Shown here piece by piece: positions 49,861 to 51,957 of a stretch of DNA of 64,000 nucleotides. Position numbers and translations under genes: made by a program. Source of the stretch: Maricaulaceae bacterium (GTDB lineage Bacteria > Pseudomonadota > Alphaproteobacteria > Caulobacterales > Maricaulaceae); contig JAHCJP010000005.1 of NCBI GenBank assembly GCA_026126205.1, positions 51,001 through 115,000 on the forward strand, written 5' to 3'. Positions within the stretch are counted from its first letter, which is position 1. Each line of letters starts with the position of its first letter. The notes under the pieces were generated by a model, which made no database searches, had not been told where the DNA came from, and was given only the letters and a program-made list of their open reading frames with translations.

Positions 49861-49888
49861 TTGATCTCAGAGCGTTTCGCGCTATAGA
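49861..49888 (+). promoter_or_regulatory. sigma-70-like promoter ahead of the RNA/RT locus
   Basis: TTGATC (49861) and TATAGA (49883) are separated by 16 bases, an acceptable -35/-10 pair. Transcription would start near 49895, immediately before the structured region. Identified by eye only. Confidence 0.35.
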
Positions 49889-49894
49889 TTCCCG

Positions 49895-50080
49895 GTTGAG
49901 TCGTTGATGCTGGTTTGCGGTATCGGCCAGATGGCTGCGTCGATCAGCATCGGCACAAGCGGAGCTTGGAGCTTCGCTTGGCGGGTTGAAGGTGTCGCAG
50001 GTAATAACCGGTCACCCGAACCCGGATGCAGCACCGTAGCCGGGGAAGAGCTTTGCCCATAGGCCCCACAGCTACGAAAT
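49895..50080 (+). ncRNA. candidate structured RNA upstream of reverse transcriptase
   Basis: Four consecutive hairpins can be drawn. (1) 49904-49913 pairs with 49944-49953 (core GATGCTG/CAGCATC). (2) CAAGCGGAGCT (49956-49966) pairs with AGCTTCGCTTG (49970-49980): 11 pairs, one G-U, 3-base loop. (3) CGGGTT (49982-49987) pairs with AACCCG (50019-50024), enclosing GGTG/CACC and GGT/ACC around AATA. (4) CGTAGC (50035-50040) pairs with GCTACG (50071-50076), enclosing GGGG/CCCC. The density of pairing directly upstream of a lone RT gene suggests a template or cofactor RNA, as in DRT-type systems or retrons. No known RNA family was recognised. Confidence 0.5.
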
Positions 50081-51342
50081 CATCTGATAAGGAATCCAAG
50101 CACGACCTTTATAAGCGTGTGCGTTCGATCGACGTGCTATTGGGTGCATGGCAAACCATACGCAGCAATGGCGAAACTTCGAGAAGCAGGAAAACACGCG
50201 AGGAGACGCGAAAATTTGGAGCGGAGTTACCAAAGAAGATTAATCAAATACAGCGACGACTTCGCAACCCTCCTTATCAGTTTGCGCAACAATACGGGGC
50301 TACGCCAGTAAAAAGAAAAGGGTCTGGAAAACGCCCTCTTGTTATCGCGCCAATCGAAGATCGCATTGTTCAAAGAGCGATATTAGATGCTTTACATGAG
50401 ATGCGCAGCAACAAAGCTATACAAAGTATTTTTGAAACCCCAGGATCTATTGGCGGGATTAGAGGGCGCGGAGTTGATAATGCAATAAAAATAATTCAAA
50501 AAGCTCATGAGGAAGATAGAGCAAAATATGTTGCAGGGTCGGACATTGCTGGGTTTTTTACAAAAATAAATCAACGCAGGGTGTGTGCATTTATTTCAAA
50601 TAATATACATGATGCTAAATTTTGCCACCTTTTTGAAAGCGCGTTACGCGTTGATTTAGAAAATGCTGATCTATTGAGCCATGAAGATGCGGCCTTGTTT
50701 CCATCTGGAGACATGGGTGTGGCACAGGGGTGCCCGTTATCGGCGCTTGCAGGCAATATAGAGCTTGGTGAGTTTGATCAGAAAATGAGCAAGGGAGATG
50801 TAATATGCATTAGATACATTGATGATTTCATTATAATTGGAAAATCTGAATCAGTAGTATCAAAATCTATGGATAAAGCAAAAAATTTACTATTAGAGCT
50901 TGGAATGAATGTATATGCTCCGGGCGACGGAACTGGTAAGGCGTTTTCGGGGCCAATTGAGGATGGGTACGAGTTTTTAGGGTATCAAGTTATACCTGAT
51001 TTTTACCCACCATCTGAAACGAATATAGTAAAATTACTGGATTCTGTTAAGAGTGAATATGGTAAAGGTCGGAATAATATACTTCGTTTTTTGAAAAAAG
51101 GTGGGAAACCCCCAATTCAACTTTATGCACAGACATTCGTTGCGGTTGATCAATTGGTGCGTGCATGGGCAGGATCGTTTAAAGCCTCGAAGTGCACTAA
51201 AACGGCGCTGTATATAGATGGTGAAATAAATAAGCTAACAAGTCATTTTATAAGTTTTTATATGCAAAAAACAAAAAATATTACGACAAGTAAAAAGAGA
51301 GAGGTTTTGGGTATTGGACTTGTTTCAAATCTTTTCTCGTGA
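50026..51342 (+). CDS. reverse transcriptase, lone (group II-like/UG-DRT type)
   Basis: 438 residues from the ATG at 50026. RT blocks: RT1 GSGKRPLVIAPIEDRIVQRA, RT2/3 GSIGGIRGRGVDNAIKIIQK and YVAGSDIAGFFTKI (first catalytic Asp), RT4 MGVAQGCPLSALAGNIELGE, RT5 CIRYIDDFIIIG (catalytic YxDD). A helical thumb follows (QLVRAWAGSFKAS and IDGEINKLTSHFISFYMQ). No maturase-type endonuclease, no integrase and no group II domain V downstream. The gene is strikingly AT-rich beside GC-rich neighbours, so it was acquired. A TTG at 50053 with GGGGAAGAG ahead is an alternative start that would leave the RNA hairpins mostly untranslated. Probable function: anti-phage cDNA synthesis; inferred from family and architecture. 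Confidence 0.88.
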   Translation: MQHRSRGRALPIGPTATKSSDKESKHDLYKRVRSIDVLLGAWQTIRSNGETSRSRKTREETRKFGAELPKKINQIQRRLRNPPYQFAQQYGATPVKRKGSGKRPLVIAPIEDRIVQRAILDALHEMRSNKAIQSIFETPGSIGGIRGRGVDNAIKIIQKAHEEDRAKYVAGSDIAGFFTKINQRRVCAFISNNIHDAKFCHLFESALRVDLENADLLSHEDAALFPSGDMGVAQGCPLSALAGNIELGEFDQKMSKGDVICIRYIDDFIIIGKSESVVSKSMDKAKNLLLELGMNVYAPGDGTGKAFSGPIEDGYEFLGYQVIPDFYPPSETNIVKLLDSVKSEYGKGRNNILRFLKKGGKPPIQLYAQTFVAVDQLVRAWAGSFKASKCTKTALYIDGEINKLTSHFISFYMQKTKNITTSKKREVLGIGLVSNLFS

Positions 51343-51404
51343 CTGTCTATAATAATTGCTCGCTGCTCCCCGGCCGACCCCCGGAAGGCGCGCCATTGAC
51401 GCGC

Positions 51405-51557
51405 CCACCCTCCCCCGGCGCGGGGAGGGTCACGAAGGGCGGCGGAGCCGTCCCGAGTGGGGTGGGGGGTGAGTGGCGCGGTCCTGAAATTCCGCCCACC
51501 CCGGCCCTCCGGGCTGGCGCCCGCAGGCCCGACCCTCCCCACGCCGGGGGAGGGTGG
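51405..51557. repeat. palindromic intergenic repeat, 27-base inverted arms
   Basis: 51405-51431 and 51531-51557 are inverted copies matching at 26 of 27 positions (core CACCCTCCCCCGGCG). Each arm is itself a near-palindrome of CCCTCCCC/GGGGAGGG. Such GC-rich elements are frequent in alphaproteobacterial intergenic DNA. It lies in the 615-base stretch without genes between the reverse transcriptase and gor. Confidence 0.7.
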
Positions 51558-51601
51558 GAAGCTTTTTTGAGGGCTGGGCGCTGAACAGCGCCTTCTGGAC
51601 T

Positions 51602-51725
51602 CCCTCGTCCTTCGTGGCTCTGCGCCTTCGGCGCATCGCACCTCAGGATGAGGGATAAGCTGAATCAACAAACCCCCTCATCCTGAGGAGTCCCGGCCGC
51701 CAGGCCGGGCCACGAAGGACGAGGG
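51602..51725. repeat. REP/MITE-like element, copy 1
   Basis: The 17-base ends CCCTCGTCCTTCGTGGC (51602-51618) and its exact inverse (51709-51725) enclose an inner inverted pair, CTCAGGATGAGGG and CCCTCATCCTGAG. Short hairpins (CGCCTTCGGCG and GGCCGCCAGGCC-type) lie between. A second copy is at 56349-56476. The rest of 51726-51957 shows no gene; the gor ribosome site AGGGGAC is just before 51958. Confidence 0.78.
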
Positions 51726-51957
51726 GGCCAGAGCGCGCATCGGTGATGCGCCCCGCCTTTCCCCGCATTGAGAGAGGGTAAGCGGCTGCGCCGGCAGCGA
51801 TGGCGGCCAAACTTATCCCCACCCCTTCAAACGGCCGTATAATGGCGGTCTGGCCAGGTTGCGCAGGCGGCGTTTGACGGCGGCGGGGCGAGGCCCCAAT
51901 TAAGCCGCTCAGACACCGGCGCCCAGCGCCGCCGGCCGCCGCGAGGGGACATGCGCC

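What the first reader, a model, noticed from the sequence alone, without database searches (positions are those of the whole stretch)
49895..51342. Lone AT-rich reverse transcriptase with a strongly structured upstream RNA
Seen: a complete RT (all catalytic Asp, including YIDD) with no maturase endonuclease, integrase or partner gene, in markedly AT-rich DNA between GC-rich rpiA and gor. Four consecutive hairpins, one with 11 pairs and a 3-base loop, sit directly upstream behind a plausible promoter. Known: DRT2- and DRT9-like anti-phage systems and retrons consist of an RT plus an upstream noncoding RNA that serves as template or cofactor. Inference: this locus is a minimal RT-ncRNA defence system. 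Its RT blocks (SDIAGFF, GVAQGCPLSALAGN) do not match a subtype I can name, so it may be a new or under-described group.
Basis: partly seen in the sequence, partly recalled or inferred. Interest (0 to 1): 0.82.

Follow-up and report, generated by a model that had tools for sequence, protein, structure and literature searches.

The report
Reverse transcriptase with repeat-flanked split gene
This gene belongs to a known family of bacterial reverse transcriptases (G2L4), and in many relatives a stretch just upstream occurs twice, nearly identical within each locus, around two halves of a small gene that the enzyme is predicted to join by copying RNA into repeated DNA; in this genome the stretch is found only once.

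Summary
The RT is real, intact and G2L4-like: YIDD, full-length match to the G2L4 crystal structures (E 3e-62), no intron RNA. The structured RNA upstream is real too (z about -4), but it overlaps a 51-codon ORF and ends in a hairpin over the RT's ribosome-binding site.
The surprise is in the relatives. In 20 distinct G2L4-like loci the same place holds two copies of a 103-161 nt repeat R, 94-100% identical within a locus but at most 37-88% identical to any other locus, 328-392 nt apart. A predicted promoter ends just before the first copy in 16 of 20. A hydrophobic N-terminal frame runs into the second R and stops soon after it; after the first R the same frame stays open for 40-117 codons. 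Joined head to tail (tandem or circular cDNA) the unit would encode one protein. Six distinct YADD-type RT loci share the layout with units divisible by 3 and one stop-free frame all round, as in DRT2's neo. Two G2L4-like RTs carry RNase H.
Inferred mechanism: strand transfer between repeats assembles the gene, perhaps for anti-phage defence. The window locus is a single-copy derivative or an assembly collapse. No function was tested.

The parts
49861..49888 (+). predicted promoter (TTGATC-N16-TATAGA), of the kind that stands before the first repeat copy in relatives
   Evidence: read from the sequence; scan score 9.6 for an overlapping pairing; inference
49901..50030 (+). single copy of the repeat R (ends approximate)
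   Evidence: aligned by eye with relatives; z -4.3 as RNA; no second copy in the own genome
49907..50062 (+). 51-codon ORF over R, ending inside the RT start region
   Evidence: frame 1 segment; counterparts in relatives
49956..49980 (+). hairpin, 11 pairs, 3-base loop
50036..50075 (+). hairpin that pairs the ribosome-binding site GGGG (50042-50045) with CCCC (50064-50067) and holds the TTG start in its loop
   Evidence: read; similar pairing in 12 relatives, with three lacking the outermost pair and one shifted
50053..51342 (+). G2L4-like reverse transcriptase, 429 aa from TTG (ORF from ATG 50026: 438 aa)
50815..50826 (+). YIDD active-site motif

Best explanation
The gene is an intact G2L4-type reverse transcriptase, and the structured stretch before it corresponds to one copy of a repeat that most relatives carry twice around a split small gene, which the enzyme is predicted to join by copying the repeat-flanked RNA into tandem or circular cDNA. 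Proposed steps: (1) a promoter just before the first R makes an RNA that starts at about R and runs R-middle-R into the RT gene (predicted); (2) the RT copies the second R, the middle and the first R up to the RNA's 5' end (inferred); (3) the cDNA end, complementary to R, anneals to the second R and synthesis goes on, like first-strand transfer in LTR elements, giving head-to-tail units of 328-392 nt (inferred; fits the strand annealing reported for G2L4 and the RNase H fused to two members); (4) each junction fuses start and hydrophobic segment, through R, to the 3' half that follows the first R, so that a complete small membrane protein can be made (frames shown, expression inferred); (5) the protein would act on the cell, perhaps as abortive anti-phage defence like DRT2's Neo (inferred). 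In the window one R and the middle are missing: a recombined remnant or a short-read assembly collapse.
For: RT identity. Repeat pair in 20 distinct G2L4-like loci (17 YIDD, 2 FIDD, 1 YVDD), plus L013 on two contigs that break at R. Within-locus identity 94.1-100%, median 99.2 (23 loci, three of them YADD), against 31.8-88.1% to the nearest other locus: the copies evolve together. Such a pair was found 0 times in 290,357 control bases at my cutoff (near miss told under evidence against). Promoter -10 box ends 4-16 nt before the first R in 16 of 20. Same frame open at least 40 codons after the first R in 20 of 20, other frames 7 of 40, 5.5 of 20 expected from shuffles; in 11 of the 20 only one frame was open across the second copy, so no choice was made. 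The most hydrophobic 17-mer spans the left edge of the second R in 17 of 20. R and middle are more structured than RT-gene pieces (p 8e-6 and 2.5e-4). RNase H on L038 and L062. Six distinct YADD loci: unit divisible by 3 and one stop-free frame all round in each; shuffles give a product of 9e-14.
Against: 5 loci, the window among them, have one copy (window, L010, L011, L018, L056), and the two YLDD relatives L020 and L021 have none. Coding signal is weak: pooled pN/pS 0.86, 0.74, 0.84 for left part, R and right part. L017 has no start codon in frame before R; 3 loci would start with TTG and 2 with GTG. In 9 of 20 loci I chose among open frames by homology or N-terminus. In the control flank of L026 one pair (97 nt, 93.8%, 288 apart) falls just under the 94% cutoff. 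The 80 nt after the second copy are not more structured than control (p 0.15). Loci are related, so products of P are not true probabilities. No RNA, cDNA or protein was measured.
Confidence: 0.48

Rival explanations
1. DNA-level switch: recombination or end joining between the two R copies cuts out a circle that carries the joined gene and leaves one R before the RT. G2L4's published annealing and end-joining activity would do or help it, and the single-copy loci are the after state.
For: L010, L011 and L018 look like left flank of copy one + R + right flank of copy two; G2L4 is reported to join ends by short homologies (PMC12337344). The halves join in the same frame as in the best explanation.
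Against: Does not explain why the predicted promoter sits right at the first R, why R and middle are structured as RNA, why RNase H is fused to two RTs, or why YADD-type units are divisible by 3 with an endless frame, which only matters for tandem copies.
Confidence: 0.2
2. Duplicated regulatory leader: R is a leader with a small ORF whose translation opens the hairpin over the RT start; the second copy upstream is a duplicate kept alike by ordinary gene conversion, and the RT works in double-strand-break repair as published.
For: ORF ends at or near the RT start and a hairpin covers the start site; published repair role (PMC12337344). Single-copy loci would be normal.
Against: Ordinary conversion need not keep the spacing at 328-392 nt in distant lineages, nor an open frame after the first copy, nor the endless frames of YADD loci.
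Confidence: 0.2
3. LTR-like mobile element: the R copies are terminal repeats of a retroelement that moves by cDNA.
For: R at both ends of the predicted RNA; RNase H in two members; an R with its left flank but no RT in the 3.1 kb held (L043); sporadic distribution.
Against: The RT gene lies outside the repeats; no integrase was seen in the unit; one such RT in the window's genome.
Confidence: 0.07

Closest known systems
G2L4 RT of Pseudomonas aeruginosa (PDB 9d5x, 9d4s; PMC12337344)
   Same: Full-length sequence match, YIDD, RT3a region about 8 residues longer than in GsI-IIC RT, no D or En domain
   Different: Plug arginines R190/R191 are Ser and His in the window. No repeat or template is mentioned in the passages I saw; the P. 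aeruginosa relative L039 has the repeat pair
DRT2 (neo; PMC12039810)
   Same: RT would turn an upstream RNA into tandem cDNA that assembles a gene absent from the chromosome as such; in YADD loci the unit is divisible by 3 and endless
   Different: RT is not DRT2 by NCBIfam (30 bits, cutoff 390); joining would use a long genomic direct repeat, not the short ACA motifs; in G2L4 loci the frame ends within one unit
DRT10 / UG17 (PMC12632851)
   Same: Best subtype model in PADLOC (110 bits); tandem-repeat cDNA from an RNA
   Different: DRT10 has a SLATT partner and short repeats (passages); none is next to the window RT
LTR retroelements
   Same: Direct repeat at both ends of the predicted RNA, RNase H in two members
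   Different: No integrase seen, RT outside the repeats

Membership tests
G2L4 RT | YIDD instead of YADD | tested here: met
   window YIDD; named as the group's distinctive mark in PMC4244168 (passages)
G2L4 RT | Full-length sequence similarity to the G2L4 enzyme | tested here: met
   E 3e-62, residues 19-425 of 429; next best chain E 4e-11
G2L4 RT | Extra residues in RT3a (plug) | tested here: met
   about 8 residues longer than GsI-IIC RT in the alignments
G2L4 RT | Plug salt bridges R190, R191 (described for relatives at 50% identity or more) | tested here: not met
   Ser and His in the window, D182 kept (numbering from PMC12337344); not a mark of the whole group, so I still file it as G2L4-like
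G2L4 RT | Dimer and end-joining activity | not testable with these tools
   needs protein
DRT2 | DRT2-family RT | tested here: not met
   NCBIfam Drt2 30.3 bits, cutoff 390
DRT2 | Tandem cDNA that forms a gene upon phage infection | not testable with these tools
   frames allow it; not measured
Group II intron RT/maturase | Intron RNA (domain V) and maturase cutoff | tested here: not met
   no Rfam match; TIGR04416 118.5 bits, cutoff 300
Retron | Retron RT family | tested here: not met
   St85 33 bits, cutoff 235; Ec67 24 bits, cutoff 450
DRT10 / UG17 | Adjacent SLATT protein | tested here: inconclusive
   only rpiA and gor stand next to the RT by ORF list; relatives' neighbours were sampled only
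Diversity-generating retroelement | Copies differing at template adenines | tested here: not met
   five pairs inspected differ at 0-2 places inside R; the two in L009 are adenines in one copy, the two in L015 are not both

The most novel reading that the evidence does not exclude
G2L4 and at least one further RT lineage form an unrecognised class of gene-assembling reverse transcriptases: each locus stores a small membrane-protein gene split and circularly permuted between two self-homogenising direct repeats, and LTR-like strand transfer on the repeat-ended RNA writes the working gene as tandem cDNA. The reported break repair by G2L4 would then be a side effect of its annealing chemistry.
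Probability: 0.4. Interest if true: 0.95.

Novelty: new variant of a known kind. Interest (0 to 1): 0.82.

Why it matters
If true, gene assembly by reverse transcription is not a speciality of DRT2 but recurs in other RT lineages with another joining device, a long direct repeat. It would give G2L4, so far described as a repair enzyme, a template and a product, and would turn many 'lone' RT genes into testable two-part systems. One capped search listed 1068 homologues at E 1e-20 or better among 7995 candidates scored; how many of them have the repeat is unknown.

Tried and rejected
Group II intron remnant: no intron RNA. Retron or a named DRT: NCBIfam scores far under cutoff. New RT group: rejected. 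DGR-like mutagenic copying: rejected, 0-2 differences inside R in five pairs. Hairpins as multicopy genomic repeats: no second copy in the own genome. Phage home: one IMG/VR contig, no phage record. Relatives of L027 and L039 in viral contigs: none. L056's 305-nt tandem array is unrelated to R. Covariation in R: not testable, R differs too much between loci. MAFFT misaligned the left arm of the start-site hairpin, so pairs were read by eye.

Rows left out of the counts: L066, L067 (broken RT, one R); L012, L014, L063 (contig starts in or near R); duplicates L054 (=L015), L058 (=L040), L060 (=L011), L068 (=L019), L069 (=L023), L052 (=L014); L042 counted with L013. L040 and L055 (and L058, L028-L033, L036) are not in the tree. 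L024-L036 are other RTs; of these L024, L026, L027 have the pair. Of 15 plasmid hits to the L027 RT I opened 6: 4 have the pair (L071 and L072 near-identical, L074, L076), 2 do not (L073; L075, beside insertion sequences).

Full report
What is in the window. The RT ORF runs 50026-51342 + in DNA of 37-47% GC between genes of about 70%. Of 29 aligned homologues, 10 start at the column of L-P-I-G-P, TTG 50053, so that is the likely start. The best PDB chains are the two G2L4 RTs (9d5x, 9d4s; E 3e-62), far ahead of a Cas6-RT-Cas1 chain (E 4e-11) and GsI-IIC RT. YIDD is called the distinctive feature of G2L4 in PMC4244168 (passages seen). Plug arginines R190/R191 of PMC12337344 (outline, abstract, first of five parts of the results and passages seen) are Ser and His here, D182 is kept. 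No Rfam family lies near.

The upstream RNA. 49895-50092 folds at -84.9 kcal/mol, z -3.7. It overlaps a 51-codon ORF, 49907-50062. The last hairpin, 50036-50075, pairs GGGG of the ribosome-binding site with CCCC inside the RT gene. Read, the same pairing can be drawn in 12 relatives. Its right arm is coding, so only the left arm tests it. The outermost pair is G-C in the window, C-G in six, G-U in two, absent in three (L011, L015, L018), and L017 has shifted arms. That is modest support.

The repeats. A near-identical direct repeat pair R turned up and then in many loci. Distinct G2L4-like loci: 20 with two copies (L009, L015, L016, L017, L019, L022, L023, L037, L038, L039, L040, L041, L053, L055, L057, L059, L061, L062, L064, L065); L013 with two copies over two contigs that break at R; 5 with one copy (window, L010, L011, L018, L056); 2 broken RT genes (L066, L067); 3 cut by a contig end (L012, L014, L063); 2 planctomycete YLDD relatives with none (L020, L021). 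Of the 20, 17 have YIDD, two FIDD (L038, L062), one YVDD (L040). R is 103-161 nt; start-to-start distance 328-392 nt. Copies are 94.1-100% identical within a locus (median 99.2 over 23 loci, three of them YADD), while the nearest other locus is 36.8-88.1% identical for the 20 and 31.8-44.7% for the three. The copies thus evolve together while the sequence drifts. At 70 nt, 94% and 250-420 nt apart, 290,357 control bases held no such pair; one pair in L026's flank (97 nt, 93.8%, 288 apart) misses the cutoff narrowly, and L056's tandem array was not in the control set.

Anatomy. (a) The best sigma-70-like promoter in the 90 nt before the first copy has its -10 box ending 4-16 nt before R in 16 of 20 G2L4-like loci and 0 of 3 YADD loci; scores as high occur in 6% of random windows of the same locus (median) (matrices from memory). 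So the RNA should begin at about R. (b) The frame that enters the second copy from the left stops 0-45 codons after it. Its start would be ATG in 14 loci, GTG in 2, TTG in 3; L017 has none. (c) After the first copy the same frame stays open 40-117 codons in 20 of 20 loci, against 7 of 40 for the other frames and 5.5 of 20 expected from shuffles. In 11 loci only one frame was open across the second copy and all 11 pass; in 9 I chose the frame by homology or N-terminus. (d) The most hydrophobic 17-mer of the joined frame reaches 1.6 or more in 21 of 23 loci (not L061, L026) and spans the left edge of the second R in 17 of 20 and 2 of 3; other frames reach as high in L041 and L059 and higher in L055. 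(e) Mean z of R -1.74 and of the middle -1.30 against -0.29 for RT-gene pieces (p 8e-6, 2.5e-4); 8 of 23 R have z of -2 or lower; the 80 nt after the second copy do not differ (p 0.15). (f) L038 and L062 RTs end in RNase H (PF00075, E 3e-22 and 6e-25), 2 of 10 RTs scanned. (g) Codon tests over 22 pairs give only a weak coding signal, pN/pS 0.86, 0.74 and 0.84 for left part, R and right part; third-position excess only in R (348/314/427).

A second lineage. Three YADD RTs outside the G2L4-like clade (clade support 100/99, long branches) have the same layout: L024, L026, L027. A plasmid search with the L027 RT gave 15 records; I opened 6, of which 4 have it. All their RTs are YADD; these four were not placed in the tree. 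In each of the 7 loci (6 distinct) the unit, 270-399 nt, is divisible by 3 and has one frame without stops all round. Shuffle probabilities run from 0.24 (L026) and 0.06 (L024) down to none of 5000 (L074); product 9e-14. DRT2's ccDNA is reported with the same two marks (PMC12039810, passages seen).

Mechanism. The reading I commit to is RNA-templated: RNA starts at R and runs past the second R, the RT passes from the first R to the second by annealing, and the tandem product makes the split gene whole. Shown: RT identity, repeats, concerted evolution, frames, RNA scores, RNase H. Predicted: promoter. Inferred: strand transfer, cDNA, protein, effect. A DNA-level excision circle would join the same halves and would explain single-copy loci; I hold it at 0.2.

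The window locus. Its left flank looks like that before a first copy (promoter, no hydrophobic start), its right flank like that after a second copy. The own genome has no other copy of R and no other such RT. L010, L011 and L018 have no separate middle piece in their genomes by a search with the L037 unit. Those three and the window come from draft assemblies; for L056 I do not know. Four loci from complete or one-contig records (L027, L038, L039, L041) have two copies, but so do drafts. A short-read assembler can lose such a loop, so I cannot tell deletion from collapse.

Distribution (own or centre genome included; E limits differ): 1 of 60 near relatives, 2 of 385 of the class, 1 of 43, 3 of 398 of the phylum, 8 of 396 of the order of Sphingomonas sp. 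Y57, 8 of 337 of the order of Ancylobacter sp. Lp-2, 1 of 341 of the order of Gilvimarinus gilvus. It is sporadic. Of 10 neighbour proteins from 8 loci, 4 match PADLOC models: type I restriction (L009), PDC-S24/Fic (L010), PDC-S31 (L017), PDC-M01B (L019). This is a small, hand-picked sample.

In print. Library searches for G2L4, group II intron-like RTs with noncoding RNA or end joining, concatemeric or direct-repeat RT systems and UG17 listed no title on such a cassette. In PMC13015716 the words repeat, operon, upstream, phage and defense do not occur. Most subscription papers are not in the library, so absence is not shown.

Noticed in passing
L038 1462-3162, L062 1423-3216: G2L4-like RTs (FIDD) fused to a C-terminal RNase H domain.
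   Followed up: partly
L043 about 1500-1640: In a Sphingopyxis genome an R with its left flank stands away from the RT contig; no RT motif in the 3.1 kb held; the right part runs into other sequence.
   Followed up: partly
L066, L067: G2L4-like RT genes that have lost their N-terminal part, with a single R left before them.
   Followed up: partly
L039 5000-12814: The P. aeruginosa RT lies between a tRNA-like stretch and an integrase gene, with recombinase, TIR-domain and inovirus-type genes: likely a genomic island.
   Followed up: no
L056 1-1115: A 305-nt intergenic tandem array upstream of the RT, unrelated to R.
   Followed up: partly
window 51360-51740: GC-rich palindromic intergenic sequence between the RT and gor.
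   Followed up: no
L023: A G2L4-like RT with the repeat pair in a Zixiibacteriota genome, although PMC4244168 described G2L4 as restricted to Proteobacteria.
   Followed up: no
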